NCBI GenBank assembly: GCA_027494015.1 | Contig: JAOSJP010000040.1 | Location: 62,001 to 126,000 of the forward strand | Length of the DNA: 64,000 nt | Direction of reading: 5' to 3' | DNA from: Anaerolineae bacterium | Lineage (GTDB): Bacteria > Chloroflexota > Anaerolineae > Aggregatilineales > Aggregatilineaceae | Part shown: piece by piece, positions 19,196-37,574 of the stretch | How the letters are laid out: each line of letters begins with the position of its first letter | Position numbering within the stretch: the first letter of the stretch is position 1 | Made by a program: the position numbers and the translations under genes | The notes under the pieces: generated by a model | Database searches by the model: none | What the model was told of the DNA's origin: nothing | What the model saw: only the letters and a program-made list of their open reading frames with translations

Positions 19196-21211
19196 ATGGC
19201 AAAAGAGAAACGCAGCCCCGAAGAACTGAGCATTGATCCCGCCGCCCAACAGATGCTGATCCGCGCCGATCAGCTCGGCATCAGCACCGCGTTCACCCGC
19301 GCTGTAGACATGGTCGCCTGCAACATCGGCGGGGCGGGCATGTGCTGCAAGCTGTGCGGCATGGGCCCCTGCCGGCTGACCAAAGATGGTCAGACCGGCG
19401 TGTGCGGCGCGACGCTGGACACCATCCAGGCGCGCAACTTCATCCGCGCCATCGCCGCCGGCGCCGCCGCCCACTCTGATCACGGGCGCGACATGGCCTT
19501 CACGCTCAAGGCCGTGGCCAACGGCCAGGCCGAAGGCTACGCCATCCGCGACGTGGCCAAGCTGCGCAATGTCGCTGCGGAGTACAACATCCCCATCGAG
19601 GGCCGCAGCCCAGAGGAGATCGCCAACGACCTGGCCGACCTGTACATCGCCCAGTTCGGCCAGCAGAAGGGCCGCGTGGCGCCAACTGTTCGCGCACCCA
19701 AGAAGCGCCAGAAGTTGTGGGAAGAGCGGCGCGTGATGCCGCGCGGCGTAGACCGCGAAGTGGTGGAGGCGCTGCACCGCACGCATATCGGCGACGACCA
19801 GGAGGCAGAGCACATCCTGGAGCACGCCGTGCGCACGGCGCTCTCTGACGGGTGGGGCGGCAGCCTGATCGCCACTGATGTCTCAGACATCCTCTTCGGC
19901 ACGCCGGCGCCCATTCTGGGCCAGGCCAATCTGGGCGTGCTGAAGGACGACATGGTCAACGTGATCGTGCACGGCCACGAGCCGACGCTCAGCCAGATGA
20001 TCGTCGCCGCCTCGCAAGACCCGGAGATCATCGCCTACGCACGCAAAGCGGGCGCGAAGGGCATCAACCTGTCCGGCATCTGCTGCACGGCCAACGAAAT
20101 CCTGATGCGCCAGGGCATCCCGGCGGCGGGCAACTTCCTGCAGCAGGAGCTGGCCATCCTCACCGGCGCGGTCGAGGCGATGGTGGTGGACGTGCAGTGC
20201 ATCATGCAGGCGCTGGTCAACCTGGCAACCAACTTCCACACCAAGATCATCACCACCTCGCCGAAGGTGCGCATCAAGGGGGCGACGCATATCGAGTTCG
20301 ACGAGCACAAGGCGCTGACCATCGCCAAGCAGATCCTGCGCGAGGCGATTGACAATTATCAGAATCGCGGCGAGACACAGATTCCCGACGTGCGCGAAGA
20401 CCTGGTTCCCGGCTTCTCGCACGAATACATCAACTACATGCTCGGCGGCAGCTACCGCGCCTCCTTCCGCCCGCTCAACGACGCCATCATGGCCGGGCGC
20501 ATTCGCGGCGTGGCGGCCATCGTCGGCTGCAACAACCCGCGCAGCAAGCACGACTACCTGCACACCTACGTCACGCGCGAGCTGCTGCGCCAGGATGTGC
20601 TGGTCGTCGAGACGGGCTGCGGGGCCATCGCCAGCGCCAAGCTGGGTCTGCTGCTCGGCGAGGCCGGGCTGGACCAGGTGGGGCCGGGCCTGCGCGAGAT
20701 CTGCGAGACGGTCGGCATCCCGCCCGTGCTGCACATGGGGTCGTGCGTGGACAACTCGCGCATCCTGACTGTGCTGACCCAGATGGTTGAGGACGGTGGC
20801 CTGGGCGACGATATTGACCAGGTGCCCGCCGTCGGGCTGGCCCCGGAGTGGATGAGCGAGAAGGCGCTCTCCATCGGCACGTACTGCGTCGCGTCGGGCG
20901 CGTATGTCATCTTCGGCGGCTCTTCGCCGATCGGCGGCATGCCCGACCGCGTGGATGACTCCGACCGCGTGCTGCGCTACATCAGCCAGGGCTGGGAAGC
21001 GCTCTACGGCGGCAAGATGGAATTTATCGCCAATCCCGACGAGATGATCCGCCGCACGCTGGAGCACATAGACAAGAAGCGCGCCGCGCTCAATCTGCCC
21101 GCTTATGATCCGGAGCGGTTCGGGCGCAGCGGCGACCAGCGCATGTTGGAACTCGAAGAACTGCCGCTGGCCGAGCGCCAGGCGGCGCTCTACGGCGTAC
21201 CGGCCAGGTAG
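19196..21211 (+). CDS. cooS: nickel-dependent CO dehydrogenase catalytic subunit (CooS/AcsA)
   Basis: 671 residues, normal family length. It interconverts CO2 and CO with ferredoxin electrons; with ACS the CO is channelled to acetyl-CoA. The N-terminal cysteines Cys42, 50, 51, 54, 59 and 70 (within CNIGGAGMCCKLCGMGPC and GVCGA) fit the D and B FeS clusters. C-cluster ligands are visible: His259 or His261 (VHGHEP), Cys296/297 (GICCTAN), Cys335 (DVQCIMQ), Cys445 (GCNNPR), Cys475 (TGCGA) and Cys517 (GSCVDN). It sits 12 bases upstream of acsB, and the context shows it is the CODH of the Wood-Ljungdahl pathway rather than a stand-alone CO oxidiser. Confidence 0.96.
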   Translation: MAKEKRSPEELSIDPAAQQMLIRADQLGISTAFTRAVDMVACNIGGAGMCCKLCGMGPCRLTKDGQTGVCGATLDTIQARNFIRAIAAGAAAHSDHGRDMAFTLKAVANGQAEGYAIRDVAKLRNVAAEYNIPIEGRSPEEIANDLADLYIAQFGQQKGRVAPTVRAPKKRQKLWEERRVMPRGVDREVVEALHRTHIGDDQEAEHILEHAVRTALSDGWGGSLIATDVSDILFGTPAPILGQANLGVLKDDMVNVIVHGHEPTLSQMIVAASQDPEIIAYARKAGAKGINLSGICCTANEILMRQGIPAAGNFLQQELAILTGAVEAMVVDVQCIMQALVNLATNFHTKIITTSPKVRIKGATHIEFDEHKALTIAKQILREAIDNYQNRGETQIPDVREDLVPGFSHEYINYMLGGSYRASFRPLNDAIMAGRIRGVAAIVGCNNPRSKHDYLHTYVTRELLRQDVLVVETGCGAIASAKLGLLLGEAGLDQVGPGLREICETVGIPPVLHMGSCVDNSRILTVLTQMVEDGGLGDDIDQVPAVGLAPEWMSEKALSIGTYCVASGAYVIFGGSSPIGGMPDRVDDSDRVLRYISQGWEALYGGKMEFIANPDEMIRRTLEHIDKKRAALNLPAYDPERFGRSGDQRMLELEELPLAERQAALYGVPAR

Positions 21212-21222
21212 GAGAGCGACGC

Positions 21223-24200
21223 ATGTCCCGATACATTGCTACGCGCGCGATTCGCGGGGCGAACGCGCTAGTCACCGAAGCAGAGCTGATGCTCGCTAAG
21301 GCGCTCGACGAGAAGGGGCCGGATACGCCCGTCTCTTTCCCCAACACGGCTTACTACCTGCCCGTGATCTACGGCATGACCGGGCGCGAAGTGACCAGGA
21401 TCGGCGACCTGGCCGATGCAGTGCGCCATGCGCGCGAGCTGCTGCACCCAGTCCCCTCGCGCCAGAAGTGGACGCCCTACCTGGGCGAGACGCTCGACAG
21501 CGGCATGGCCACCCTGCTGGCCGCCGAGACCATCGAGGCGATACGCTTCGTCTACGGCTTGCAGCCGGAGCCGTTCCCCGGCATCGAGCTGGCCGGCGGC
21601 ACGTCCTACGGCGGCACCGGCAGTGACCATGTCGGCCACCTCAACGGCCCCATTGACGACATCCAGCTTCGCTCGTGGGGCATCCAGCTTGTAGACGGGC
21701 GTATGCCCGGCTTCGCGGCGATTGTCGGCGCGGCCCGTTCCAACGAGGTCGCCGTCAAGATCGTGCGCGAATTGCAGCAGCGCAACATCCTGTGCTTCCT
21801 CTCCGGCAACGTCAACGGGCGCAGCATCATCCACCAGTTGCAGGAGGAAGGCGTCGAGCTGGGCTACGACACCTACACCGTGCCCTTCGGCACCGACACG
21901 ATCAGCGCCATCTACGCGCTCGGCTTCGCCACGCGCTCGGCGCTGACCTTCGGCGGCATCAAGGCCGGCCAGGCGCGCGATATCCTGCTGTATAACAAGC
22001 AGCGCGTGTTCGCCTTTGTGCTGGCCCTGGGCGAAGTGGACGATCTCAAGTACGCGGCGGCGGCGGGCGCCATCAACTATGGCTTCCCGGTCATCGCCGA
22101 CACGGTCATTCCCGAAATCCTGCCCACGGGCGTCACTACCTACGAGCACGTGGTCAGCATGCCCTTCAACGAGATCGAGGGCAAAGACGACCTGGAGCGC
22201 GCCGAAATCCTGGTGCAGAAATGCATCGAGGTGCGCGGCGTGAAGATCAAGCTCGCCGACGTGCCCGTGCCCGTGCCCTATGGCTCGGCTTTCGAGGGCG
22301 AAGTGGTGCGCAAGGCCGACATGCGCGTCGAGTTCGGCGGCAAATACACGCGCTGCTTCGAGTATCTGCGCATGGTGGACATGGACCAGGTGCAGGACGG
22401 CAAGATCGAGATCGTCGGCCCGACCTTCGACGACATCGAGGCGCAGGGTCACATGGACCTGGGCATCGTCATCGAGGTGGCGGGCCGCCAGATGCAAAAA
22501 GACTTCGAGCCGGTGCTGGAGCGCCAGGTGCACTACTTCGTCAACGGCGCGTCCGGCATCCAGCACATCGGCCAGCGCGACATCGCCTGGATTCGCATCT
22601 CCAACGCCGCCGCCGAAAAAGGCTTCAACCTGGAGCACTTCGGCAAGATTCTGCACGCCCGCTATCACGCCGACTTCGGCGCGATTGTGGACAAGGTGCA
22701 GGTGACGCTCTACACCGACAAGGCGGAGATCGAGAAGTGGCTGGCGCGGGCGCGCGAAGCCTACGATTACCGCAACAAGCGCCTGGAAGACCTGACCGAC
22801 ACGGCGGTGGACGAGTTCTACTCGTGCACGCTGTGCGTCCCGCCCGACCAGGACATCATGCTGGCCGATGGCTCGTTCCTGCCCATCGAAACGCTGATCC
22901 ACCAGACAGTGGACGACGGCCTGCGCCCGGTCATGACCTTCGCTCAAGACCGGCTCACCAGCCACTCGATGGGCGAGTTGTTCATCAACCCCGCTCCGCG
23001 CGAGCTGGTGAGCATCCGCCTGAAGAATGGCAACGACCTGACCCTGACCGCCAACCACAAGGTGCTGGTGGACAGGCCGGAAGGGTTGCTGTGGGTGGCC
23101 GCCGGCAAGCTCCAGGCCGGGGACTACGTGCTGGACGCGCTGCCCGCGCTGGCAGAGTCTGGCGGAGAACCCCCTTACATCATTGACTTTCTGCCAGAAG
23201 ACTACAAAGTTGCGGATGATGCGTTCTACCGGCAGTTGCGCGCCTGGACGCTGGCCCGCTACCCGCGCCTGAGCGAGGCGGCTGGCGCTTTCGGCCTCCC
23301 CTACCGGCGGCTGTACAGCGCGCTCTACTCGCGTCAGGGGGTTTCGCACCAGCGACTGACTATCGGCGAGATCAAGACGGCGCTGGCTGTGCTCGGCCAG
23401 GACTGGGAGGCCGTGAAACAGACGCTGCGCTGCTTCCAGGCGAAGGCCGCGCTGAACCGCACCGAACTCGACGCCGACCTGGTCTATCTGGCCGGCCTGG
23501 TGGCAGCGGACGGTTGCGTGCGCTGGCGCGGCCCCCAGGGACGCAGCGGCGTGTCTGTCCAGTTTACTAACACCGAACCCGCGCTCGTGCAGCGCTTCAA
23601 CGAGATCGTGACCCAGGTCTTTGGGCGCGCGCCCACGCAGCAGACAGTGCCACCCAAGACCAGCCGCTCGGACGACCTGGTGATCGAGGGTCGCCGCGCT
23701 GTCACGGTGGCTGTAGCTGGCAACACCCTGCTGGGCCGCCTGCTCAATGGGCTGGGGATCGGCCTGCCCGACCAGGAGCAAAAATGGAGCGGCTACGCCA
23801 TCTCCGCGCTTCCCGGCGATCTGGTGGCGGCTTTCCTGCGCGGCCTGTTCGACGGTGACGGGCACGTTTCAGGCCAGCGGGCGCTGTTCACCGCGCGCAC
23901 GAAGGGTGAGGCACGCCACGTTCACCTGCTGCTCAAGAAACTGGGCATAGTCTCGTACATCACGCCCATCACACGCGGCTACCAGGTGGCGACCAGTTCC
24001 GATGGCGACGCGCTGCGCTTCCGCGAGCGCGTTGGCTCCGATCATCCGGACAAGCGCGCCCGCCTGGACGCGATCACCTTGCGCCAGGACGAGGGCCATG
24101 TCGTGCGTAACGACACGATTCCCCTGTCCTGCCAGGTGTATCTAACGGCCCTGGCAGAGCGCTATCCGATCCCGGTCAGCCGCTTGCCGGTGGACGACAA

Positions 24201-27200
24201 GACGTTCTCAAGCTGGCGCAAGGGCGAGACTCGGCCCAGCAAGGCCAAGCTCGCGGCTGTGCTGGATGTCCTGAACGGCCTGGTTCCGCCCCAGGACGCC
24301 GATTACGCGGCGCTGCGGGCCTGGGCGCAAGCCGATGTGCGCTTCCAGCAGGTCAGCGAAGTCGTCCCCGTCCCCAGCCAGGGCGAGCGCGTCTACAACT
24401 TCAGCGTCGAGCACACACACAACTACGTGGTCAACGGCGTGATCGTCAAGAACTGCCAGTCGTTCGCCCCAGACCACGTCTGCATCGTCAGCCCAGAACG
24501 GCTGGGGCTGTGCGGCGCGTACAACTGGCTGGACTGCAAGGCATCCTTCAGCATCAACCCCACCGGCCCCAACCAGCCGATCAAGCTCGGCCAGATCATT
24601 GACCCGGTCAAGGGCTACTGGACGGGCACCAACGAGTACGCCGGCATCGGCTCACACGGCACCGTGCAGAAGGTGTCCATGTACTCGATCATGGAAAATC
24701 CGATGACGGCCTGCCTCACCCAGGACGCTGAGGTGATCATTGATGGCCGCCTGACGACCATCAGGGAATGGGTAGACGCTCACCATGGTCAGCCAGGGCC
24801 GTTCGACTCAGTCGCTACGACTCTCGATGATGCTGGCCAAATCACGCCGAGCCGCGTGCTTGGCGTTCATCTCAACCCTGCGCCGCCGTTTTTGGTAGAG
24901 TTGGAGACCAAATCCGGCCAGCGGTTGACCCTGACGCCAAACCATCCCGTCGCTGTTGATCGCTCTGCAGGACAGGTCTGGGTTCGGGCGGACGGGTTGC
25001 AGGTCAATGACCGGGTGTATGCGGCCAGACACATCAAGGTTCAGGAGCATACTCCGCTGGCAATAGACTTGCTGCCGGACGGCTGGCGCATTGCCGACGA
25101 CATCCTGATCACCGAAGCCTGGGCAAAACTGGAGACGGCTTACGGCTCAAAGGCAGCAGCCCGTCGCGCACTGCCGGAACTGCCAGACGTGCGCTCAAGC
25201 TGGTCGCTCTCCCTCTACCGCAAGGTTTGTGAAGGGCTGGGCGAAGACTGGGCCAAGATCAAGACACGTATCCGGCGAGTCGCTCCGCCAGCCGGAAATC
25301 CAGCTCAACGGCTGCCGGAAATCACGCCTGACCTGCTCTACCTGCTTGGTTTCCTGGCCTCAGATGGGTCGCTGAACTGCGTAGGCGAGAGCCAATGCCA
25401 GGCCTTCTTTACCAACACCGAACCTGCCCTGCTGAGCCATATCCAGACAGTCTATGAGCGTGTCTTCCCTGACAAGTCGCTGGGCCGCCGCGAAAAGACT
25501 CACAGCGGTAGAATCGGGACACGATCTATCACCCCGACCAAGACAGGGATGGAGCTTTATGGTTCCAACGCGCTTCTCGGCGCTCTGGCAGATGCACTGG
25601 GCATCCGGCGGGCTGACTCTTCCACCTGGGATTTGAGACGTCTTTTCACGCTGCCCGAAACGCATATCGCTGCGTTCATAGCAGGCGTCTTCGACGGAGA
25701 CGGCTCAGTACGGGTTCGGGAACAGAATGGCTGGATCGTTGGAGAGGCGTACCTGTGCCATAGCGACGAGCAAGCTGCGCGTCATATGGCGCTTCTGCTG
25801 AGACGGCTCGGCATCGTGGCCCATTTCAGCGCAGGCCCGATCTACAAGCTAACCATGCACGGCGCTGACCTGCGACGGTTTGCCTCGCTCATTCACAGCC
25901 ATCACCCCACACGAGCCGAAAAGTTGGCAATTCTAAAGGCTGAAAATGCTGCTGAACTGGATAAGTCCCAGTCGGAAGTGTTGCCCTATGCCGCTGGACA
26001 GGTGCTGGCTCTAGCAGACGCAGCGGGAACATTGAGCACGTCCACGCGCTACTACTATGCAAGCGGGCGTTCACGGCCTGTCAGGGGAAATGTGGCGCGT
26101 GTCCTGGAAGCTCAGCCTGATATAGCCCCAACGCTGCAACCCTGGCTTGAACGCGATGACCTGCTGGACACGGTGACGCGCGTTGAAATGATCCAGAATG
26201 ACGGCAGGTATGAGCACGTTTACAACCTGAGCCTGTTGGACATCAACAGCTACCTGGCAAACGGCCTGCTCGTCAAGAACTGCGGCTGCTTCGAGTGCAT
26301 CGTCATGCTCATCCCCGAAGCGAACGGCGTGATGATCGTCAGCCGCGAAGACACGAGCATGACCCCGGCGGGCATGACCTTCAGCACGCTGGCCGGCATA
26401 GCCGGCGGCGGCCTGCAAACGCCGGGCGTGATGGGCGTCGGCAAATACTACCTGATCAGCCCTAAATTCATCTCCGCCGACGGCGGCCTGAAGCGCGTGG
26501 TGTGGATGAGCAGCATTCTCAAAGAGACGATGGCCGACGAGTTTCGTGTCGCCGCCGAGCGCGAGGGCATACCCAACCTGCTCGACAAGATCGCCGACGA
26601 GCGCAGCGTGTCCGATGTCAGTGAGCTGGTCGCCTGGCTGGAGGAGCACAATCACCCGGCCCTGGCCATGGGGCCGATGGAAGCCAGCGCCGCGCCGGAC
26701 GCAGCAGCGGAAGCCATGCCCGCCAGCGCCGGCGAGATTGACGTGGCGCTCGACGCGCTGGACGAAGCTGCGCCAGCGGTTGAGCCGGAGCCAGAACCCG
26801 CCCTGCCCGAACCGGCGCAGGCCATGTTTGAAGCGCAAGCGGAGCCAGAACCCGCCATGACCCCTGAGCCTGTACCAGCCGATCTGCCGCCCGGCGAGCC
26901 GGGCGCGCCCGAAAGCCCGACAGCCCAGCAGCCGCCGGCCCCTGTGCCGCCCGTTGCGCTGGGCGACGCGGGCGCAGTGTTCTTCGACCAGCTTCGCCGC
27001 GCGCTGGCCGCCGGTCTGCTGGCCGCCGCGCGCGAGCTTGGCGCGGACGTGAGCAGCGTGCCTCTGCCAGCGCCGCCCGCCGCGATTCCCACGCCGCCGC
27101 CGGCCCCTGTTATGCCCGCGCAGGCCGCCCCGCTGCCTCCCGCCCCACCTGCCGAGCCGGTGAAGGCCGAGGCACCCGTCGCGCCGCCCAAACCCGCTGA

Positions 27201-28233
27201 GCCACCCAAGCCCTCCGCCCCGCCCAGGAAGGCGCTGCCGCCCGACAAGCCCTGGCTGAGCGCCGAGACCAAGACGGAGATCGTCAAGGAGAAGTGGCCC
27301 GGCAAGGTGCGCGAGGTGACGCTTGGCGCGACCCAAGAACAGGGCGGCACGCGCGCCCGCGCTCTGACGGTCGGCGGCGAGAGCGCCCTGCCCTTCATGT
27401 TCTTCGAGGGCGACATCCCGCACCGGCCCGCCGTGGCCATCGAGATCGAGGATCGCCGCCCGGAGGACTGGCCGCCAGTGCTGCTGCAGGCGTGGGGCGA
27501 CGCCGCCAACGACCCGGCGGCGTGGGCGCAGGCCGCCGAGAAGGCGGGCGCTGACGCCATCGTCCTGGCGCTGAGCCTGACCGACGCCGACGGCAAGCCC
27601 AACACGCCGGAGCGCGCCGTCGCCGTGACCAAAGCCGTGCTCCAGGCCAGCGGCCTGCCGCTGATCGTCTGGGGGCCGGGCCAGGCCGAGGCCGACAACG
27701 CCCTGCTGGTGCCCGTCGCCGAGGCGACCGCCGGCGAGCGGCTGGCGCTCGGCCTGTGCGAGGACAAGAACTACCGCACCATCGTCGCCACCGCGATGGC
27801 CAACCATCACCTGATCATCGCCCGCACGGCGATGGATGTCAACCTGGCCAAGCAGCTCAACATCCTGATCAGCGATATGGGCCTGCCGCTCGACCGCGTG
27901 CTGATGGACCCGACGACGGGTGCCCTCGGCTATGGCATCGAATACGGCTACTCGGTGATGGAGCGCCTGCGCCTGGCGGCCCTGCAGGGCGACGCCATGA
28001 CCCAGCTGCCGATGATCGTCACGCCCGGCTACGAAGCCTGGAAAGCCAAGGAGGCGAAAGTGGGCGCGGGCGTGCCGGAGGCGTGGGGCGACTGGGCAGC
28101 GCGCGCCATCCACTGGGAGACGCTGACGGCGATGGCCCTGGTCGAGTCGGCGGCGAACATCGTCGTGCTGCGCCACCCGGAGAGCGTCAAGCGGGTGCGC
28201 CTGGCCATTGACGACCTGATGAGCGCCAGGTGA
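21223..28233 (+). CDS. acsB: acetyl-CoA synthase (AcsB) with two inteins, fused to CFeSP small subunit (AcsD)
   Basis: 2336 codons. ACS exteins are residues 1-537, 1078-1163 and 1687 to about 1820. After splicing, Cys535, 538, 547 and 557 have exactly the spacing of the Moorella A-cluster cubane ligands (506, 509, 518, 528), and Cys624-Gly-Cys626 matches Cys595-Gly-Cys597. Intein 1 is residues 538-1077 and intein 2 residues 1164-1686. The N-terminal CODH-binding domain of bacterial ACS is present. A Pro/Ala/Glu-rich linker (about 1820-2008) leads into a complete AcsD (about 2009-2336). The predicted mature fusion is about 1273 residues. The ATG follows GGAGAGCGACGC. The open frame is continuous and codon use is coherent, apart from intein 2, which looks lower in GC. 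Confidence 0.95.
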   Translation: MSRYIATRAIRGANALVTEAELMLAKALDEKGPDTPVSFPNTAYYLPVIYGMTGREVTRIGDLADAVRHARELLHPVPSRQKWTPYLGETLDSGMATLLAAETIEAIRFVYGLQPEPFPGIELAGGTSYGGTGSDHVGHLNGPIDDIQLRSWGIQLVDGRMPGFAAIVGAARSNEVAVKIVRELQQRNILCFLSGNVNGRSIIHQLQEEGVELGYDTYTVPFGTDTISAIYALGFATRSALTFGGIKAGQARDILLYNKQRVFAFVLALGEVDDLKYAAAAGAINYGFPVIADTVIPEILPTGVTTYEHVVSMPFNEIEGKDDLERAEILVQKCIEVRGVKIKLADVPVPVPYGSAFEGEVVRKADMRVEFGGKYTRCFEYLRMVDMDQVQDGKIEIVGPTFDDIEAQGHMDLGIVIEVAGRQMQKDFEPVLERQVHYFVNGASGIQHIGQRDIAWIRISNAAAEKGFNLEHFGKILHARYHADFGAIVDKVQVTLYTDKAEIEKWLARAREAYDYRNKRLEDLTDTAVDEFYSCTLCVPPDQDIMLADGSFLPIETLIHQTVDDGLRPVMTFAQDRLTSHSMGELFINPAPRELVSIRLKNGNDLTLTANHKVLVDRPEGLLWVAAGKLQAGDYVLDALPALAESGGEPPYIIDFLPEDYKVADDAFYRQLRAWTLARYPRLSEAAGAFGLPYRRLYSALYSRQGVSHQRLTIGEIKTALAVLGQDWEAVKQTLRCFQAKAALNRTELDADLVYLAGLVAADGCVRWRGPQGRSGVSVQFTNTEPALVQRFNEIVTQVFGRAPTQQTVPPKTSRSDDLVIEGRRAVTVAVAGNTLLGRLLNGLGIGLPDQEQKWSGYAISALPGDLVAAFLRGLFDGDGHVSGQRALFTARTKGEARHVHLLLKKLGIVSYITPITRGYQVATSSDGDALRFRERVGSDHPDKRARLDAITLRQDEGHVVRNDTIPLSCQVYLTALAERYPIPVSRLPVDDKTFSSWRKGETRPSKAKLAAVLDVLNGLVPPQDADYAALRAWAQADVRFQQVSEVVPVPSQGERVYNFSVEHTHNYVVNGVIVKNCQSFAPDHVCIVSPERLGLCGAYNWLDCKASFSINPTGPNQPIKLGQIIDPVKGYWTGTNEYAGIGSHGTVQKVSMYSIMENPMTACLTQDAEVIIDGRLTTIREWVDAHHGQPGPFDSVATTLDDAGQITPSRVLGVHLNPAPPFLVELETKSGQRLTLTPNHPVAVDRSAGQVWVRADGLQVNDRVYAARHIKVQEHTPLAIDLLPDGWRIADDILITEAWAKLETAYGSKAAARRALPELPDVRSSWSLSLYRKVCEGLGEDWAKIKTRIRRVAPPAGNPAQRLPEITPDLLYLLGFLASDGSLNCVGESQCQAFFTNTEPALLSHIQTVYERVFPDKSLGRREKTHSGRIGTRSITPTKTGMELYGSNALLGALADALGIRRADSSTWDLRRLFTLPETHIAAFIAGVFDGDGSVRVREQNGWIVGEAYLCHSDEQAARHMALLLRRLGIVAHFSAGPIYKLTMHGADLRRFASLIHSHHPTRAEKLAILKAENAAELDKSQSEVLPYAAGQVLALADAAGTLSTSTRYYYASGRSRPVRGNVARVLEAQPDIAPTLQPWLERDDLLDTVTRVEMIQNDGRYEHVYNLSLLDINSYLANGLLVKNCGCFECIVMLIPEANGVMIVSREDTSMTPAGMTFSTLAGIAGGGLQTPGVMGVGKYYLISPKFISADGGLKRVVWMSSILKETMADEFRVAAEREGIPNLLDKIADERSVSDVSELVAWLEEHNHPALAMGPMEASAAPDAAAEAMPASAGEIDVALDALDEAAPAVEPEPEPALPEPAQAMFEAQAEPEPAMTPEPVPADLPPGEPGAPESPTAQQPPAPVPPVALGDAGAVFFDQLRRALAAGLLAAARELGADVSSVPLPAPPAAIPTPPPAPVMPAQAAPLPPAPPAEPVKAEAPVAPPKPAEPPKPSAPPRKALPPDKPWLSAETKTEIVKEKWPGKVREVTLGATQEQGGTRARALTVGGESALPFMFFEGDIPHRPAVAIEIEDRRPEDWPPVLLQAWGDAANDPAAWAQAAEKAGADAIVLALSLTDADGKPNTPERAVAVTKAVLQASGLPLIVWGPGQAEADNALLVPVAEATAGERLALGLCEDKNYRTIVATAMANHHLIIARTAMDVNLAKQLNILISDMGLPLDRVLMDPTTGALGYGIEYGYSVMERLRLAALQGDAMTQLPMIVTPGYEAWKAKEAKVGAGVPEAWGDWAARAIHWETLTAMALVESAANIVVLRHPESVKRVRLAIDDLMSAR
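22834..24453 (+). mobile_element. intein 1 in AcsB (540 aa, LAGLIDADG endonuclease)
   Basis: It begins with Cys538 (CVPPDQDIMLADGSF, block A). Block B has TLTANH (Thr609-x-x-His612). Endonuclease motifs are LAGLVAADG (about 756-764) and LRGLFDGDG (about 872-880). Block F is VYNFSVEHTHNYV. It ends VIVKN, with Asn1077 before the extein Cys1078. The usual penultimate His is Lys. Removal gives the seamless ACS text YSCTLCQSFAPDH. The insertion point is the A-cluster cysteine that bridges the cubane and the proximal nickel. Confidence 0.95.
24712..26280 (+). mobile_element. intein 2 in AcsB (523 aa, LAGLIDADG endonuclease)
   Basis: It begins with Cys1164 (CLTQDAEVIIDGRL). Block B is TLTPNH (Thr1238-x-x-His1241). 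Endonuclease motifs are LLGFLASDG (about 1374-1382) and IAGVFDGDG (about 1486-1494). Block F is VYNLSLLDINSYLANG, without the usual His. It ends LLVKN, with Asn1686 before extein Cys1687. Removal gives ENPMTACGCFECI, the canonical ACS sequence. Codons here are visibly less GC-rich than in the flanking exteins. Sequence outside the blocks differs clearly from intein 1, so this is not a recent duplication. Confidence 0.95.
27247..28233 (+). other. acsD: AcsD domain: corrinoid iron-sulfur protein small subunit (C-terminal third of the fusion)
   Basis: From about residue 2009 the text KEKWPGKVREVTLGA...GGTRARALTVGGE matches the normal N-terminus of free AcsD, and about 328 residues follow, the usual full length (Moorella subunit about 323). 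It includes the TIM-barrel segment MDVNLAKQLNILISDMGL and LMDPTTGALGYGIEYGYS. AcsD pairs with AcsC to hold the corrinoid that carries the methyl group. A separate acsD gene is absent from the window, which supports a functional fusion. Confidence 0.93.
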
Positions 28234-28309: not shown

Positions 28310-28843
28310 ATGACCCAACGCCACCTTGTGCGCGACCTGATGACTGTGGGCGTCCTCACCTGCACGCCGGACGCCACCGTCGCTGAGATCGCGCGGCTGC
28401 TGCTCGAACACAACCTGGAAGGCGTGATCGTCCTCGACCACGAGGGCCACGCCGTCGGGACGGTGACGCAGCATGAGTTGGTCGGCGCGTACCAGCACGA
28501 GAATCCGCGCGCTCTGACTGCCGCGGCGATCATGGGCGAGGACGTGCCAGAGCTGCCGCCCGACATTCCACTCGTCGCGGCGGCGGGCCTGATGCGCGAC
28601 CACGGCTGGCGCGTCGTCTTCCAGATGCACAACACGACGGGCATCAGCTATCCAGCGGCCCAGCTATCCTACGGCCACTTCCTGCGCCACCTCGCTGCGC
28701 GCAGCGACGCCGAGCTGGCCGACCTGGGCATTCGCGCTGCGCGCCAGTCGCCCATGCAGCTTTACGCCCAGAAGCGCGACGCGGCCCGCCGCCAGCGTCT
28801 CGGTGCGGCGGCGGGCGAGCTTATGCGGAAGGGACGTTCATGA
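28310..28843 (+). CDS. CBS-domain protein 1 of the acs operon
   Basis: 177 residues with two CBS motifs: VRDLMTVGVLTCTPDATVAEIARLLLEHNLEGVIVLDHEG (about 6-46) and a second, less perfect repeat (IMGEDVPELPPDIPLVAAAGLMRDHG, about 74-100). CBS pairs form an adenosine-nucleotide-binding Bateman module. The C-terminal tail (SYGHFLRHLAARSDAELADLGI) is shared with the next gene, so the two are paralogues. No attached enzyme domain is present. Lying between acsB-acsD and acsC, it probably regulates or senses energy state for the pathway; this is inference. Its stop overlaps the next start by four bases (ATGA). Confidence 0.82.
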   Translation: MTQRHLVRDLMTVGVLTCTPDATVAEIARLLLEHNLEGVIVLDHEGHAVGTVTQHELVGAYQHENPRALTAAAIMGEDVPELPPDIPLVAAAGLMRDHGWRVVFQMHNTTGISYPAAQLSYGHFLRHLAARSDAELADLGIRAARQSPMQLYAQKRDAARRQRLGAAAGELMRKGRS

Positions 28844-29316: not shown

Positions 29317-29367
29317 CCCGTGCGGCGCCCGGCGCCGTCCGGCAGATCGCCTGTTGAGGAGACGACA

Positions 29368-30708
29368 ATGGCACTTTCAGGCATTCAGATCTACCAACTG
29401 CTGCCGCAGACCAATTGCAAGGAATGCGGCTTCCCCACCTGCATGGCCTTCGCCATGAAGCTGGCCGCCAAACAAGTCGAGCTTGCCGCCTGCCCCTATG
29501 TCAGCGACGAAGCGAAGGAGAAACTCTCCGCTGCCGCGCAGCCGCCCGTGCGCCTGATCACGCTCAAAGCCGACGGTCACGCGGTCAAGGCGGGCAACGA
29601 GACGGTGATGTTCCGCCACGAAAAGCGCTTCTTCAACAAGCCGGGGCTGTTCGTGCGCGTGCGCGACGACCAGCCGCTCGACGCGATCAAAGCGAAAGTA
29701 TCCGCCGCCGAAGCCTACAAAGTGGCCTATGTGGGCATGGACCTGGCCCTGGACGGTTTCGCCGTCGAGACGGTCAAGGGCGACCCGGTGGCCTTCGCCG
29801 ACGCGGTGGGCGCCGTGCGCGAGGTGAGCGAGCGCCCGCTGATCCTGATGGGCCGCGACCCGGCGGTGATCGCCGCCGGGCTGAAGGCCATTGACGGCGA
29901 GGCTCCGCTCATTCACGGCGCGGACTCGGCCAACTGGGGCGCGATGGCCGACCTGGCCAGGAGCACCGGCGCGCCGCTGTCGGTCATCGCCGACACGCTT
30001 GATGGCCTGGTCGCCCTCAGCAGCAAGCTCAAAGAGAAGGGCCTGGACGACCTGGTGCTGGCCCCCACCGCCCGTCACCTGGGCACGTCGCTGGGCTTCT
30101 ATACGCAGATGCGGCGGCTGGCGCTGAAGAAGAGCTTCCGTCCGGTGGGTTATCCCATCCTGGCCATCCCCGGCGACGCGCCCGATCCGGGCTATGAGTC
30201 GCTGCTGGCGACACAGGCCATCGCCAAGTACGCCGGTTTTGTGGTGCTGGACACCTTCACGCCGGAGCTGGCCTACGGACTGCTCGTGCTGCGCGAGAAC
30301 CTTTACACCGACCCGCAGAAGCCGATCCAGGTGCAGCCGGGCGTCTACGAGCTGAACAACCCGACGCCGGAATCGCCGGTGATGGTCACCACCAACTTCA
30401 GCATCACCTACTTCAGCGTGGCCAACGAGGTCGAAGGCTCCGGGCTGCCCGCCTGGCTGCTGGTGACCGACGCCGAGGGTATGAGCGTGCTGACTGCCTG
30501 GGCCGCCGGCAAGTTCGACGCCGAGCGCATCGCCAAGTCGGTCAAGGAGTTCGGGCTGGCCGAGAAGGTCAGCCGCAAGCGCATCGTCCTGCCCGGTCAT
30601 GTGGCCGTGCTCTCCGGCGAACTCGAAGAGGAGCTGCCCGACTGGGATGTGCGCGTCGGCCCGCGCGAGGCGGTGGACATCCCGTCGTTCATGAAACAGG
30701 CGCTGTGA
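29368..30708 (+). CDS. acsC: corrinoid iron-sulfur protein large subunit (AcsC)
   Basis: 446 residues. The N-terminal [4Fe-4S] domain has Cys17, Cys20, Cys25 and Cys42 (CKECGFPTC...AAC). A TIM-barrel domain follows, and the C-terminal B12-binding domain contains SITYFSVANEVEGSGLPAWLLVTD (about 348-370). With AcsD it carries the methyl group as methyl-Co(III) from AcsE to ACS. The ATG at 29368 gives the standard N-terminus (MALSGIQIYQLLP) after a GAGGAG site; sixteen upstream codons are open but implausible. Adjacent to acsV, as expected. Confidence 0.95.
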   Translation: MALSGIQIYQLLPQTNCKECGFPTCMAFAMKLAAKQVELAACPYVSDEAKEKLSAAAQPPVRLITLKADGHAVKAGNETVMFRHEKRFFNKPGLFVRVRDDQPLDAIKAKVSAAEAYKVAYVGMDLALDGFAVETVKGDPVAFADAVGAVREVSERPLILMGRDPAVIAAGLKAIDGEAPLIHGADSANWGAMADLARSTGAPLSVIADTLDGLVALSSKLKEKGLDDLVLAPTARHLGTSLGFYTQMRRLALKKSFRPVGYPILAIPGDAPDPGYESLLATQAIAKYAGFVVLDTFTPELAYGLLVLRENLYTDPQKPIQVQPGVYELNNPTPESPVMVTTNFSITYFSVANEVEGSGLPAWLLVTDAEGMSVLTAWAAGKFDAERIAKSVKEFGLAEKVSRKRIVLPGHVAVLSGELEEELPDWDVRVGPREAVDIPSFMKQAL

Positions 30709-30718
30709 TACTCGACTG

Positions 30719-32653
30719 ATGGCTGAGCATACTGTCACGTTTGATATTGCCGAAGGCCCCGTCACGGTGCCGACCGGGACACTGCTGACCGAGGCTGCGC
30801 GCCGGGCCGGGGTGGAGATCGCCCAGCCGTGCGGCGGGCAGGGGCGTTGCGGACGCTGCGCCGTGCAGGTGACCGCCGGCACCGTCCGCCGCCGCAGCGC
30901 GCTGCGCCTGAGCGCCGAAGACGTGGCGGCGGGCTACGCCCTGGCCTGCCAGACGGTTGTCGAAGGCGATGTGCGCGTCGTCGTCCCGCCGCAAGAGAAG
31001 ATCGAGCGGCGGCTGACAACGGATCGCACGGCAGCCGAAGTTCAGGTGCCGGAGGGCTACGATCCGGCTCGCGTCCAGCCTATTCACCGCGTGACGCTGA
31101 CGACCACGCCGCCCAGCCTGGACGATCAGACCAACGACTGGAGCCGCTTCCAGACGGCGCTGCGCCAGCACGCGCGCCTGGCCGAAACGCACATCTCGCT
31201 GATGCAGCTTCGCCGCCTGGGGCACATCCTGCGCCGGGGAGATTGGCAGGTCACGGCGGTGCTGGACGCCGAAGCGTGGGACTGCCCGCACTGCCCGGTG
31301 CGCCTGATCGAGCTGAAACGCGGCGCGGTGAACGAAGACTCGCCGCTGTGGGGCGCGGCCATTGACATCGGCACGACGACTGTCTCGCTGTGGCTGGTTG
31401 ATCTGCTGACGGGGCGGGTTCACGCGCAGGTGGCCGAGTACAACGCCCAGATCGCGCGCGGCGAAGATGTCATCTCGCGCATCATCTACAGCGGCAAGGG
31501 CAGCGGCGGTGAGGAACTGCGCGACCTGGTGCTGAACACAATCAAGACGCTGGTCGAAGAAGCCTGCCAGCGCCTGCGGATTGCGCCGACCGAGATCATG
31601 AAGGCCACCATCGCCGGCAACAGCACGATGATCCACCTGCTGCTGGGCATCCCGGCCCGCAGCATCCGTCTGATGCCGTTCGTCACCACTGTCAACCACG
31701 TCCCCACCCTGACGGCGCACGAAGTGGGCCTGGCCATCCACCCGGACGCGACGGTGGACTGTCTGCCGGGGGTGGCCAGCTATGTGGGCGCGGACATCTC
31801 GGCGGGCGTGCTCTCCTCCGGCCTGGACGACACCGAGCTGGTGACGCTGTTCATTGACGTGGGCACCAACGGCGAGATCGTGCTCGGCAACAAGGACTGG
31901 CTGGTGACGGTCGCTGCCTCGGCAGGGCCGGCGTTTGAGGGCAGCGGCGTGCAGCATGGGATGCGCGCCACCAAAGGGGCCATCGAGGAGGTGTGGGTCA
32001 ACGGCAACACCTACGAGCCGACCTACCGCGTAATCGGCGGTGTCAGGCCGCGCGGGCTGTGCGGCAGCGGGCTGATCTCGCTGCTGGCGGAGATGTTCCT
32101 GACCGGCGTGGTGGACAAAGGCGGGCACGTCAACACCCATCTGCCCACCCCGCGCGTGCGGGTCGGCGAGCACGGCCCGGAGTACGTCGTGTGCTGGGCC
32201 GCCGACAGCGCCACAGGGAGCGACATCGTCGTCACCGACGTGGACATAGACAATCTGATCCGCACGAAGGCGGCCATCTACGCCGGCTTCACCGTGCTGG
32301 CGCAGAGCGTTGGCCTCACGCTCGACGACGTGGAGCAGGTGTTGGTGGGCGGCTCATTCGGCAAGTATATCAACGTCGAGAAGGCCATTCAGATCGGCCT
32401 GCTGCCCGACATGCCCTGGGATCGCTTCCAGTTCCTGGGCAACACGTCCATCAAGGGGGCGTACCTGGCGCTGCTCGACCGCCGGGCGCGCAGCCGCATC
32501 AAGGACATCGCCAACCGCATGACCTACATCGAGCTATCGGCGGACAACACGTTCTACGAGGCGTTCACATCGGCGCTGTTCCTGCCGCACACCGACCTGT
32601 CACGTTTCCCGTCTGTGCAGGCGGCGATGGAAGTCAAGAGCGGCAGGGGCTAG
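30719..32653 (+). CDS. acsV: reductive activator of the corrinoid protein (AcsV/RACo)
   Basis: 644 residues. The N-terminal [2Fe-2S] ferredoxin domain has Cys38, Cys44, Cys47 and Cys77 (PCGGQGRCGRC, ALACQT). The C-terminal part is the ASKHA-type ATPase of RACo proteins, with GAAIDIGTTTVSLWLVDL near residue 215 and FIDVGTNGEIVLG near 380. It uses ATP to lower the barrier for reducing inactive Co(II) in AcsC/AcsD back to Co(I). It starts ten bases after acsC. A MITE-like element begins exactly at its stop codon. Confidence 0.94.
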   Translation: MAEHTVTFDIAEGPVTVPTGTLLTEAARRAGVEIAQPCGGQGRCGRCAVQVTAGTVRRRSALRLSAEDVAAGYALACQTVVEGDVRVVVPPQEKIERRLTTDRTAAEVQVPEGYDPARVQPIHRVTLTTTPPSLDDQTNDWSRFQTALRQHARLAETHISLMQLRRLGHILRRGDWQVTAVLDAEAWDCPHCPVRLIELKRGAVNEDSPLWGAAIDIGTTTVSLWLVDLLTGRVHAQVAEYNAQIARGEDVISRIIYSGKGSGGEELRDLVLNTIKTLVEEACQRLRIAPTEIMKATIAGNSTMIHLLLGIPARSIRLMPFVTTVNHVPTLTAHEVGLAIHPDATVDCLPGVASYVGADISAGVLSSGLDDTELVTLFIDVGTNGEIVLGNKDWLVTVAASAGPAFEGSGVQHGMRATKGAIEEVWVNGNTYEPTYRVIGGVRPRGLCGSGLISLLAEMFLTGVVDKGGHVNTHLPTPRVRVGEHGPEYVVCWAADSATGSDIVVTDVDIDNLIRTKAAIYAGFTVLAQSVGLTLDDVEQVLVGGSFGKYINVEKAIQIGLLPDMPWDRFQFLGNTSIKGAYLALLDRRARSRIKDIANRMTYIELSADNTFYEAFTSALFLPHTDLSRFPSVQAAMEVKSGRG

Positions 32654-32875: not shown

Positions 32876-32968
32876 AGTCCGGCCAGGCTGCCTGGGGTGT
32901 TTGTGCAGACGCCGGCAGGCCAGCCCCACTTCGTGCGATTGATTGCCGACACGGAAAAGGACAAGACC

Positions 32969-33892
32969 ATGTATATCATCGGTGAGAATATTCATATCAT
33001 TTCGCCCAGAGTCAAAGATGCGCTTGCCGCCAAAGACCGCGAGTTCTTCATGGACCTGGCCGTGCGCCAGGTGGAGGCGGGCGCGCAGGCGGTGGATCTC
33101 AACCTCGGCCCGCGCAAAAAGGACTGGGAAGAGGTTTTCCCCTGGATGGTCGAGACGGTCGAGGCGGTGGTGGACGTGCCGCTGGTCTTCGACAGCACCA
33201 ACCTGCTGGGCATCGAGGCCGGTCTGAAGAAAGTGACCAAAGCCCAGCCGATCATCAACTCGACCTCCGCCGAGCCGGAGCGGCTGGAGAAGGTGCCGCT
33301 CGTCGCCAAGCAGTACAACGCCAAGGTGATCGCCCTGACGATGGGCACCAGCGGCATCCCCGTCAGCGCCGACGAGCGCGTCAACATCGCCGTCGAGCAC
33401 CTCATCCCGCGCATGGTCGAGATTGACTATCCCGTGCAAGACCTGATCATTGATCCGCTGGTGCTCACCGTCTCCGGCTGCCAGGAATACTGCCCGGAGT
33501 GCATCGAGGCGGTGCGCATGTTGCCCTATGTGTGGGACCCGGCCCCGCAGATTTCGGTCGGGCTGTCCAACGTCTCTAATGCCGTCCCGCGCGAGAACCG
33601 CCCGCTGATCAACCGCGTCTACTGCGCCATGCTGATGGGTGCCGGCCTGCAATTGATGATCGCCGACCCGTTCGACGAGGAGCAGAACGAGGTCATCCGC
33701 GTCATCGAGCAGCGCGACGAAGGCACGGCCCTGGGCCGCCTGTACATCAAGATTCACGACCGGGTGCAGGCGATGGAGCAGCCGCAGCTCGAGGACGTGG
33801 ACATGAGCGACCCGGAGCAGGCGGCCATCTGGAAGACCGTGCAGATTCTGCTCAACAAGGTGATCTACGCGGACAGCTATCTACAGCAGTAG
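32969..33892 (+). CDS. acsE: methyltetrahydrofolate:corrinoid iron-sulfur protein methyltransferase (AcsE)
   Basis: 307 residues of the pterin-binding (dihydropteroate synthase-like) TIM-barrel family. Signatures: MYIIGENIHIISP at the start, AVDLNLGP near residue 40, VFDSTN near 71 (folate-binding Asp/Asn), and SVGLSNVSNAVP near 196. It moves the methyl group from methyl-THF to Co(I) of the corrinoid protein. It is longer than the about 262-residue Moorella enzyme, with an extended C-terminal tail (IKIHDRVQAMEQPQLEDVDMS). The ATG at 32969 follows AAGGA; 24 upstream codons are open but lie in the gap. Confidence 0.93.
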   Translation: MYIIGENIHIISPRVKDALAAKDREFFMDLAVRQVEAGAQAVDLNLGPRKKDWEEVFPWMVETVEAVVDVPLVFDSTNLLGIEAGLKKVTKAQPIINSTSAEPERLEKVPLVAKQYNAKVIALTMGTSGIPVSADERVNIAVEHLIPRMVEIDYPVQDLIIDPLVLTVSGCQEYCPECIEAVRMLPYVWDPAPQISVGLSNVSNAVPRENRPLINRVYCAMLMGAGLQLMIADPFDEEQNEVIRVIEQRDEGTALGRLYIKIHDRVQAMEQPQLEDVDMSDPEQAAIWKTVQILLNKVIYADSYLQQ

Positions 33893-36006: not shown

Positions 36007-36786
36007 ATGAAACTCGCCATCAGCGGCAAAGGGGGCGTGGGCAAGACGACGCTCGCTGCCCTGCTCGCCCAGGTTTACGCCGACGCCGGACGCGACGTGC
36101 TGGCCGTGGACGCCGACCCCGCGCCGTGCCTGGCCGGGGCGCTCGGCTTCCCGCCCGAACTGCGCGCCCGGTTGCGCCCCATCGCCGAGATGGACGCGCT
36201 GATCGAGGAGCGCACCGGGGCCAAGCCGGGCACCGTCGGCGGCTTCTTCACGCTCAACCCGCGCGTGGACGACCTGCCGGAGCGTTTCAGCGTGACGCAT
36301 CGCGGCGTGCGCCTGCTGGAGATGGGATCGGTAGACCTGGGCGGATCGGGCTGCATCTGCCCGGAGAGCGCCATGCTCAAGACGCTGTTCACGCACCTGC
36401 TCTTCCGCAAGGACGACGTGTTGATCCTGGATATGTACGCGGGCGTCGAGCACCTGGGCCGGGCGACGGTGGACTTCGTGGACGCGCTGATCGTCGTCGT
36501 TGAGCCGACGCGACGCAGCCTGGGCACCGCCGCCCAGATCAAGAAGCTGGCGGCGGACATCGGCCTGACGCGACTGTGGCTGGTTGGCAACAAGGTGCGC
36601 GACGAGGAAGAAGCCGCTTTCCTGGCCGCCGAGACGCCCGGCTTGCCCCTGCTGGGCACGCTGCCCGCTGACCTGGCCGTGCAGGAAGCCGACCGGCGCG
36701 GCATCGCTGTATACGATTTCGTCCCGGCCCTGCGCCAGTCCGCTGAGCGCATGGCCGCGACGCTGAGCGCGGAGATTGAAGGCTGA
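36007..36786 (+). CDS. cooC: CooC/AcsF-type nickel-insertion ATPase, first copy
   Basis: 259 residues, MinD/ParA-like ATPase. The deviant Walker A is GKGGVGKTT at residues 7-15; Walker B-like VLILDMYAGVEHLG is near 139. The Cys-x-Cys motif Cys116-Ile-Cys118 (GSGCICPE) matches the metal-binding dimer-interface motif of CooC. CooC-type ATPases aid nickel loading of the C-cluster of CODH; AcsF does this for ACS. The downstream paralogue starts on the last base of this stop codon (TGATG), so the two are coupled. Which protein serves CODH and which ACS is unknown. Confidence 0.9.
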   Translation: MKLAISGKGGVGKTTLAALLAQVYADAGRDVLAVDADPAPCLAGALGFPPELRARLRPIAEMDALIEERTGAKPGTVGGFFTLNPRVDDLPERFSVTHRGVRLLEMGSVDLGGSGCICPESAMLKTLFTHLLFRKDDVLILDMYAGVEHLGRATVDFVDALIVVVEPTRRSLGTAAQIKKLAADIGLTRLWLVGNKVRDEEEAAFLAAETPGLPLLGTLPADLAVQEADRRGIAVYDFVPALRQSAERMAATLSAEIEG

Positions 36787-37574
36787 TGACGACGACCATC
36801 GCCCTGGCGGGCAAGGGCGGCGTGGGCAAGACGACCATCGCCGCCATGATCATCAAGTATCTGGCCCAGACGCAGCGTGGGGCCATCCTGGCTATTGACG
36901 CGGACCCCAGCAGCAACCTGAACATGGTGCTCGGCCTCGATCTGGAATGGACAGTGGGCGACATCCGCGAGGGGCTGCTGGAGAAGGTCAAGGAGTCGCT
37001 GACGGCGGGCGGGGCGGCCATGGGCGCGCTGGACGGCGGCCTGACCAAGCGCGAATACCTGGATTACGAGGTGCGCGCCGCCCTGTCCGAAGGCTCGCGC
37101 TTCGACCTGATCGCCATGGGCCGCTCCGAAGGTCCCGGCTGCTACTGCGCCGTCAACCATAACCTGCGCGAAGTGGTGGACAGCATCAGCAAGAACTACC
37201 GCTACGTGGTCATTGACAACGAGGCGGGCATGGAGCACCTCAGCCGGCGCACCACGCGCGATGTGGAGCTGCTGCTGGTCGTCAGCGACGCCACGCAGCG
37301 CGGCATCGTCGCCGCCGAGCGCATCGCCTCCTTCCGCCACGCGCTGGATATCAACATCGGCGCGGCCTACCTCATCCTCAACAACGTGCCCGGCGGGGTG
37401 ATCCCCGCTCCGCTGCAAGCGCGCCTCGCGCAACTCGATCTGCCGCTGCTGGGCGCGGTGCCGGGCGACGAGAAGCTGGTCGAGTTCGAGTTCAGCGGGC
37501 GCCCGCTGGTCGAGCTAGGCGACGAGTCGCCGGTCTACCGGGCGGTCGCGGCCATGATGGGGCAGATTCTCTAG
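36786..37574 (+). CDS. acsF: CooC/AcsF-type nickel-insertion ATPase, second copy
   Basis: 262 residues. The Walker A is AGKGGVGKTT (9-17), ADPSSNLN is near residue 40, and Cys119-Tyr-Cys121 (GPGCYCAVN) is the metal-binding pair. It is only moderately similar to the gene before it, so this is an ancient pair rather than a fresh duplication. A neat hypothesis is that one copy loads the C-cluster of CooS and the other the A-cluster of the spliced ACS. The symbol is provisional. It ends at a TAG that is also the left end of a MITE-like element. Confidence 0.88.
   Translation: MTTTIALAGKGGVGKTTIAAMIIKYLAQTQRGAILAIDADPSSNLNMVLGLDLEWTVGDIREGLLEKVKESLTAGGAAMGALDGGLTKREYLDYEVRAALSEGSRFDLIAMGRSEGPGCYCAVNHNLREVVDSISKNYRYVVIDNEAGMEHLSRRTTRDVELLLVVSDATQRGIVAAERIASFRHALDINIGAAYLILNNVPGGVIPAPLQARLAQLDLPLLGAVPGDEKLVEFEFSGRPLVELGDESPVYRAVAAMMGQIL

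What the first reader, a model, noticed from the sequence alone, without database searches (positions are those of the whole stretch)
22834..26280. Two inteins placed exactly at the nickel-ligand cysteines of acetyl-CoA synthase
Removing residues 538-1077 and 1164-1686 from the ORF restores continuous ACS. The +1 cysteines of the two exteins then fall at mature positions 538 and 624. Aligned with the Moorella numbering (offset 29, confirmed by matching Cys spacing at 535/538/547/557 versus 506/509/518/528), these are Cys509 and Cys595, the ligands of the catalytic proximal nickel. Both inteins therefore make A-cluster formation conditional on splicing. Insertion at conserved active-site cysteines is common for inteins, but two in one ACS at two such ligands appears highly unusual. 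I do not recall inteins described in ACS.
Basis: partly seen in the sequence, partly recalled or inferred. Interest (0 to 1): 0.95.

Follow-up and report, generated by a model that had tools for sequence, protein, structure and literature searches.

The report
Twin inteins at ACS's nickel cysteines
In this bacterium the gene for acetyl-CoA synthase, a key carbon-fixing enzyme, is interrupted by two intein sequences placed exactly at two cysteines that correspond to the active-site nickel ligands, so the enzyme would work only after both inteins have, as predicted, cut themselves out of the protein.

Summary
Confirmed to the residue. One open ORF (21223-28233, 2336 aa) encodes acetyl-CoA synthase (ACS) fused to the corrinoid-protein subunit AcsD, with a 540-aa intein (a) and a 523-aa intein (b). 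Their +1 cysteines align with Moorella Cys509 and Cys595, which hold the proximal nickel (ligand roles recalled). Both have class 1 splicing residues, LAGLIDADG motifs and confident intein-fold models. It is not a one-off: in 183 ACS proteins (62 of them found with the inteins as query) all 115 long inserts sit at exactly these two sites, and 20 proteins carry both. Each site holds one intein clade in the trees. Synonymous divergence and tree conflict indicate horizontal movement of both, so the primary reading is two selfish homing inteins that must splice before the A cluster can form. Both families share unusual assisting residues: Lys, not His, before the terminal Asn, and Asn in block F. 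Placement at nickel ligands is largely explained by conservation and does not itself show regulation. I found no paper describing inteins in ACS. Splicing itself is predicted, not tested.

The parts
21223..28233 (+). acsB-acsD fusion gene with two inteins: 2336-aa precursor, 1273 aa after removal of both
21223..22833 (+). N-extein: ACS residues 1-537 (CODH_A_N and CdhC domains; Cys535 = Moorella Cys506 by the same offset)
22834..24453 (+). Intein a, 540 aa: Cys1, block B T72-x-x-H75, LAGLIDADG motifs at 219 and 335, block F Asn522, penultimate Lys539, Asn540
   Evidence: AlphaFold2 pLDDT 87.5, pTM 0.88; best PDB match 2cw7
24454..24711 (+). Middle extein, 86 aa; first residue = Moorella Cys509, also holds the equivalents of Cys518 and Cys528
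24712..26280 (+). Intein b, 523 aa: Cys1, block B T75-x-x-H78, LAGLIDADG motifs at 211 and 323, block F Asn505, penultimate Lys522, Asn523; GC3 0.656 against 0.89-0.91 in the ACS exteins
   Evidence: AlphaFold2 pLDDT 88.7, pTM 0.89; best PDB match 2cw7
26281..26679 (+). C-extein of ACS, starts Cys-Gly-Cys = Moorella Cys595-Gly-Cys597
26680..27276 (+). Linker rich in Pro, Ala and Glu between ACS and AcsD (boundaries approximate)
27277..28230 (+). AcsD/CdhD domain (corrinoid iron-sulfur protein small subunit), fused in frame, residues about 2019-2334
19196..21211 (+). Anaerobic CO dehydrogenase catalytic subunit, directly upstream
   Evidence: TIGR01702, over its cut-off
29320..30708 (+). AcsC-like large corrinoid iron-sulfur subunit (gamma)
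   Evidence: NF003195, over its cut-off
30719..32653 (+). AcsV-like corrinoid activation protein (below the curated cut-off)
32897..33892 (+). Pterin-binding protein, AcsE-like methyltransferase candidate (name inferred)
36007..37574 (+). Two adjacent CbiA/MinD-type P-loop ATPases, candidate CooC-like nickel-insertion factors (role recalled, not tested)

Best explanation
The ACS gene carries two full-length inteins with homing-endonuclease motifs, inserted exactly before the codons of the residues equivalent to Moorella Cys509 and Cys595; each is predicted to excise itself by class 1 protein splicing, and only the doubly spliced ACS-AcsD protein would be able to build the nickel-containing A cluster. 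Shown: boundaries, residue identities, intein folds as models, recurrence at the same two sites, one intein clade per site, low dN/dS, and sequence signatures of horizontal transfer in both families. Inferred: that splicing occurs; that the same thiol serves first as splicing nucleophile and later as bridging nickel ligand; that the unspliced precursor is inactive; and that the inteins persist mainly as selfish homing elements aimed at highly conserved active-site codons.
For: Pfam/NCBIfam intein, LAGLIDADG, ACS and AcsD models tile the ORF. +1 residues align to Moorella 509 and 595. All 58 a inteins and all 57 b inteins of the survey, window included, have Cys1, a block B TxxH, terminal Asn and +1 Cys. 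AlphaFold2 models match intein/homing-endonuclease structures over most of their length. 115 of 115 long inserts in 183 ACS proteins fall at the two sites. Empty sites in relatives: L003 lacks b, L006 and L007 lack a. Each site holds one clade (30 a and 28 b rows; 17 and 16 rows). Mobility: between window and L006, intein b has dS 0.214 (95% interval 0.16-0.27) against 0.522 (0.43-0.63) in the ACS exteins; intein b GC3 is off; intein a of four ACS proteins only 45-47% identical to the window's nests inside the a inteins of window-like ACS, AU p 8e-31. dN/dS of the endonuclease part 0.10-0.28 in five relatives. In 8 of 8 genomes checked all ACS C-terminal-domain pieces lie in one gene, so no intein-free copy was found there.
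Against: No splicing, expression or activity data. The penultimate His (G:6) is Lys in both inteins, block F position 4 is Asn, and b also lacks the block F His (my reading), so slow or incomplete splicing is possible. Both inteins of L001 and intein a of L003 are more diverged from the window's than the exteins are (dS 0.35-0.42 against 0.19-0.23), which shows no recent sharing there. L007 and L004 show no clear difference. The genome of the window is not held, so a second ACS copy there cannot be excluded.
Confidence: 0.88

Rival explanations
1. The inteins have become regulators: splicing is conditional (redox, temperature or metals such as Zn or Ni) and gates A-cluster assembly, switching the Wood-Ljungdahl pathway on after translation.
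For: Both +1 thiols align with the later metal ligands. Both families conserve the same non-standard residues, Lys at G:6 (52 of 58 and 51 of 57) and Asn at F:4 (56 of 58 and 55 of 57). 12 of 57 b inteins lack an endonuclease-sized insert yet persist. Zinc binds a catalytic cysteine and reversibly blocks the DnaB intein of Mycobacterium smegmatis (PMC7360933, passages), so metals can gate an intein.
Against: Patchy occurrence: at least 14 of 151 ACS-bearing genomes of the class sample. Transfer signatures and low dN/dS in the endonuclease fit selfish spread. Site choice is largely explained by conservation: 11 of 85 Cys/Ser/Thr are at least 95% conserved, six of them A-cluster Cys.
Confidence: 0.15
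2. The inteins are decayed or splice poorly, and the ACS of this organism is non-functional or yields mainly cleavage products; since AcsD lies after both inteins, C-terminal cleavage could free it without making ACS.
For: Assisting residues His G:6 and Asp F:4 are missing in both. A database gene call of the window's own protein starts at Met1161, dropping the first half (P0178).
Against: Nucleophiles, block B and frame are intact; ACS exteins have dN/dS of about 0.10-0.15 against five relatives; the A-cluster cysteines are kept; intein-bearing ACS is the only copy found in 8 of 8 genomes checked.
Confidence: 0.07
3. The insertions are an assembly chimera or another kind of insert.
For: Intein b has a lower GC3 than the exteins.
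Against: Same boundaries in many separate assemblies and collections, with open frames.
Confidence: 0.01

Closest known systems
Class 1 inteins with LAGLIDADG endonuclease (PDB 2cw7 'intein homing endonuclease II', TliVMA 7qss, PI-PfuI 1dq3)
   Same: Fold in the models, Cys1, block B Thr/His, C-terminal Asn, +1 Cys, two LAGLIDADG motifs
   Different: Sequence identity 14-18%; Lys at G:6 and Asn at F:4, where the review PMC4031507 names His at G:6 and Asp, Cys or Trp as the common F:4 residues (passages); host is ACS
Double inteins of haloarchaeal MCM (PMC10643990, abstract and passages)
   Same: Two inteins close together in one gene, each with its own endonuclease; single and double alleles both occur
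   Different: Host is a metabolic metalloenzyme; the empty sites are 86 codons apart; both +1 residues align with nickel ligands; intein spread in ACS is inferred from sequence, not tested
Nearest non-ACS inteins by sequence: a V/A-type ATPase subunit (P0168), MCM helicases (P0169-P0173) and an archaeal-type helicase (P0193)
   Same: Splicing and LAGLIDADG domains, about 22-30% identity over long stretches
   Different: Their C-termini read SN (P0168) or HN (the other nine shown), not KN
Conditionally splicing inteins (mycobacterial DnaB, PMC7360933, abstract and passages)
   Same: Inserted in a conserved host protein; a metal that binds a catalytic cysteine can stop splicing there
   Different: No condition-dependent splicing tested here

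Membership tests
Intein (class 1) | In-frame insert whose removal restores a continuous conserved host protein | tested here: met
Intein (class 1) | Cys/Ser at position 1, block B TxxH, terminal Asn, +1 Cys/Ser/Thr | tested here: met
   58 of 58 a and 57 of 57 b, window included
Intein (class 1) | Common assisting residues: penultimate His (G:6) and block F Asp/Cys/Trp (F:4) | tested here: not met
   Window has Lys and Asn in both inteins. These residues assist and are not obligatory: splicing without a penultimate His is in print (title seen in the reference list of PMC4031507)
Intein (class 1) | HINT fold | tested here: met
   AlphaFold2 models and Foldseek matches; prediction only
Intein (class 1) | Autocatalytic splicing | not testable with these tools
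   needs expression
LAGLIDADG homing endonuclease | Two LAGLIDADG motifs with acidic residues | tested here: met
   LAGLVAADGC and LRGLFDGDGH in a, LLGFLASDGS and IAGVFDGDGS in b
LAGLIDADG homing endonuclease | Cuts the empty allele and homes | tested here: inconclusive
   Transfer signatures in sequence; cleavage not tested
Acetyl-CoA synthase (AcsB/CdhC) | A-cluster cysteines 506, 509, 518, 528, 595, 597 (Moorella; list recalled) | tested here: met
   all six 100% conserved in the 36-row diverse set
Conditional (regulatory) intein | Splicing that responds to a signal | not testable with these tools
   no expression data

The most novel reading that the evidence does not exclude
Two ACS-specialised intein families, sharing an unusual Asn/Lys splicing centre, use the thiols of Cys509 and Cys595 first as splicing nucleophiles and then as nickel ligands, so that metal or redox state decides whether the A cluster is born: a post-translational gate on the Wood-Ljungdahl carbon-fixation pathway, spread between bacterial phyla by homing.
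Probability: 0.12. Interest if true: 0.88.

Novelty: new member of a known kind. Interest (0 to 1): 0.62.

Why it matters
ACS is a hallmark enzyme of the Wood-Ljungdahl pathway, and its A cluster needs these cysteines. Inteins whose +1 thiols would become bridging nickel ligands tie protein splicing to metallocluster assembly in one chemical group. That makes two questions directly testable: whether metals compete with splicing, and whether an intein can gate carbon metabolism. The two sites also give a natural record of intein invasion (empty, single, double and endonuclease-less alleles) in a metabolic enzyme, and warn that ACS in such genomes can be truncated or misnamed by annotation.

Tried and rejected
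Assembly artefact: rejected by recurrence. Other insertion sites in ACS: none found in 183 proteins, but 62 of these came from searches with the inteins themselves as query, and the extein search listed only 120 of 1593. Phage or plasmid vector: a viral scan with alignment A3 (intein a first, b rows included) gave 20 weak relatives (best segments 22-46%), phages one RecA intein at 21.5% for intein a, plasmids nothing for intein b; b was not run on phages, nor a on plasmids. Whether a and b are sisters: unresolved; a V/A-ATPase intein falls between them, but a+b as one clade is not rejected (AU p 0.21). Host genome: not held. Taxonomy of the distant hosts: of the ACS proteins under 60% identity I saw an informative source name only for P0157 (Candidatus Aerophobetes); P0141 is named 'bacterium'. 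Co-occurrence of a and b in the extein-search set (9 both, 4 a only, 23 b only, 81 neither; p 0.001) ignores kinship and is not used as evidence. Paper searches on conditional splicing and penultimate residues gave background only; the library was not asked about every possible name of ACS.
Full report
What is there. The ORF at 21223-28233 (+) is open for 2336 codons. Pfam and NCBIfam place CODH_A_N, CdhC, an intein, the middle of the ACS C-terminal domain, a second intein, the rest of ACS, and CdhD/AcsD along it. phmmer against PDB sequences breaks ACS into 10-538, 1078-1164 and 1686-1820. Intein a is residues 538-1077, intein b 1164-1686; removing them gives 1273 aa. Directly upstream is the CO dehydrogenase catalytic subunit; downstream are two small proteins with weak matches to CBS-domain families, AcsC, an AcsV-like protein, a pterin-binding protein and two CbiA/MinD-type ATPases, so this looks like a Wood-Ljungdahl operon.

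The nickel ligands. The 87 residues from the +1 Cys of site a to the first Cys of intein b align to 509-595 of Moorella ACS (1oao_C), and the extein after intein b to 595-727. That Cys509, Cys595 and Cys597 hold the proximal nickel, and that Cys509 bridges to the [4Fe-4S] cluster, is recalled knowledge. All six A-cluster cysteines are 100% conserved in 36 diverse ACS rows.

Is the placement special? ACS (756 aa) has 85 Cys/Ser/Thr, the possible +1 residues. Local conservation ranks site a 2nd and site b 15th of the 85. Two sites drawn at random from the 85 would both be among the three proximal-nickel ligands with probability 3/3570; drawn from the 11 Cys/Ser/Thr that are at least 95% conserved it is 3/55 (arithmetic). 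Conservation thus explains most of it. A study of native insertion sites reports a mean of 8.3 A to active-site residues against 21.1 A for other Cys/Ser/Thr (PMC3359363, passages), so active-site placement is normal for inteins.

Splicing anatomy. Intein a: Cys1, T72xxH75, Asn522 in block F, Lys539, Asn540. Intein b: Cys1, T75xxH78, Asn505, Lys522, Asn523. Across the survey Cys1, TxxH, terminal Asn and +1 Cys hold in 58 of 58 a and 57 of 57 b inteins; penultimate Lys in 52 of 58 and 51 of 57 (His in one each); block F Asn in 56 of 58 and 55 of 57 (the motif was not found in 2 a rows, and 2 b rows have Cys). Four distinct non-ACS C-terminal motifs that a pattern scan recovered in the same genomes all end HN with Asp in block F; that scan was not exhaustive. 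Of ten non-ACS relatives, nine end HN and one SN. The review PMC4031507 names His as the penultimate residue and Asp, Cys, Trp as common in block F (passages). A Lys/Asn centre therefore looks unusual, though splicing without a penultimate His is known (reference title seen there).

Structure. AlphaFold2 models, from shallow alignments of 9 and 12 rows, reach pLDDT 87.5 (a) and 88.7 (b), pTM 0.88 and 0.89. For both, the best PDB match is 2cw7, an intein homing endonuclease, followed by TliVMA and PI-PfuI inteins.

Recurrence. A scan of species genomes kept 80 loci of 291 relatives; the query contained the inteins, so the ranking favours them. From the layout of matches in all 80 and motifs in 16 of them, site a is occupied in 6 loci (L001-L005, L008; L004 and L008 are two contigs of one genome), b in 10, both in 4 (L001, L002, L004, L005; in L002 and L004 one intein is cut by a contig end). 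A protein search with the middle extein under a length window of about 812-2583 aa listed 120 of 1593; of the 117 covering both sites (P0002, P0025, P0031 left out) 81 have neither, 23 b only, 4 a only, 9 both. Most intein-free ACS is shorter than that window, so these shares are not prevalences. With two further searches using an a and a b intein I aligned 183 ACS proteins (the window, 120 and 62; 11 non-ACS hits dropped) by a splice-aware alignment over ACS residues 1-756: 115 long inserts, 58 at 537|538, 57 at 623|624, none elsewhere; of 172 covering both sites 81 have none, 36 a, 35 b, 20 both. In an evenly drawn sample of the class of G003, 151 of 396 genomes have ACS and at least 14 carry an intein: 2 a, 10 b, 2 both; six with cut or unclear ACS pieces (G454, G456, G491, G499, G517, G636) were not resolved, and the row list was cut. 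In the phylum sample I saw split ACS in 2 of 49 ACS-bearing genomes of 400, one being the centre genome itself. In 8 of 8 genomes checked the ACS pieces lie in one gene.

Evolution. Each site's inteins form one clade (30 a and 28 b rows, SH-aLRT 100; 17 and 16 rows, bootstrap 100). Intein b of window and L006: dS 0.214 (0.16-0.27) against 0.522 (0.43-0.63) for exteins, so b most likely moved after the hosts parted; intein b GC3 is 0.656 against 0.89-0.91. P0021 and P0189 share 59% of ACS but 75% of intein b; P0007 and P0127 45% of ACS but 57% of intein a, while window and P0105 share 77% of ACS and only 53% of intein a. In trees of 32 hosts, four distant ACS (one of them, P0133, fused to CODH) form a remote clade, yet their a inteins nest inside those of the 16 window-like ACS; holding those 16 together is rejected, AU p 8e-31 (quick trees, group chosen by host identity). 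Results the other way: a is more diverged than the exteins between window and L001 or L003, and b likewise between window and L001 (0.35 against 0.19); L007 and L004 show overlapping intervals. dN/dS in the endonuclease part is 0.10-0.28. 12 of 57 b inteins but 0 of 58 a inteins are under 300 aa, too short for the endonuclease.

How it most likely works. Translation gives the 2336-aa precursor. Each intein folds as its own HINT domain, shifts the upstream peptide bond to Cys1, passes the N-extein to the +1 Cys, cyclises its Asn and leaves a native peptide bond. The two +1 thiols, freed by the last acyl shift, would then take up the cluster and nickel. All of this is inferred from residues and family knowledge. 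AcsD, downstream of both inteins, is made as part of the precursor. I take the inteins to be selfish elements first; regulation is possible and untested.

Literature. Searches of the held PMC library: intein with acetyl-CoA synthase (3 papers), carbon monoxide dehydrogenase (3), Wood-Ljungdahl (0), Chloroflexi (15), CODH (1), acetyl-CoA decarbonylase (0), Anaerolineae (0). I read the intein passages of five (PMC6390638, PMC3087415, PMC2718504, PMC12713403, PMC11021460); none places an intein in ACS. The others were seen as listings only; subscription papers and InBase were not searchable. Some database entries already bear names such as 'CO dehydrogenase/acetyl-CoA synthase beta subunit/intein/homing endonuclease' (P0126, P0129), so automatic annotation has met these inteins.

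Noticed in passing
window 26680-28230: ACS is fused in frame to AcsD (corrinoid protein small subunit) through a Pro/Ala/Glu-rich linker; many listed relatives also carry PF03599 (whose length window favours such fusions).
   Followed up: partly
P0178 against window 21223-28233: The database gene call of the window's own protein begins at Met1161, just before intein b, and two relatives (P0179, P0180) begin at the same place; the reason is unknown.
   Followed up: partly
P0133, P0136: Intein a also sits in CODH-ACS fusion proteins (Prismane domain plus ACS) of a distant lineage (P0133).
   Followed up: partly
Intein b survey (12 of 57): Endonuclease-less mini-inteins were found only at site b, not at site a (0 of 58).
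   Followed up: partly
L006 9870-11438: Intein b of L006 has Gly in place of the acidic residue of the first LAGLIDADG motif (alignment), so its endonuclease may be dead although this intein is closer to the window's than the exteins around it are.
   Followed up: no
window 28310-29316: Two tandem small proteins with weak matches to CBS-domain families sit between the ACS-AcsD gene and acsC.
   Followed up: no
window 37876-42117 (-): 1413-aa protein joining a protein kinase, an FGE-sulfatase-like domain, WD40-like repeats and an SH3 domain.
   Followed up: no
G001-G012 genomes: 8 of 12 genomes, most of them chosen for their ACS inteins, have intein hits over the family cut-off; in G001, G002, G003, G005 and G008 such hits lie on contigs other than that of ACS, so these hosts hold further inteins.
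   Followed up: partly
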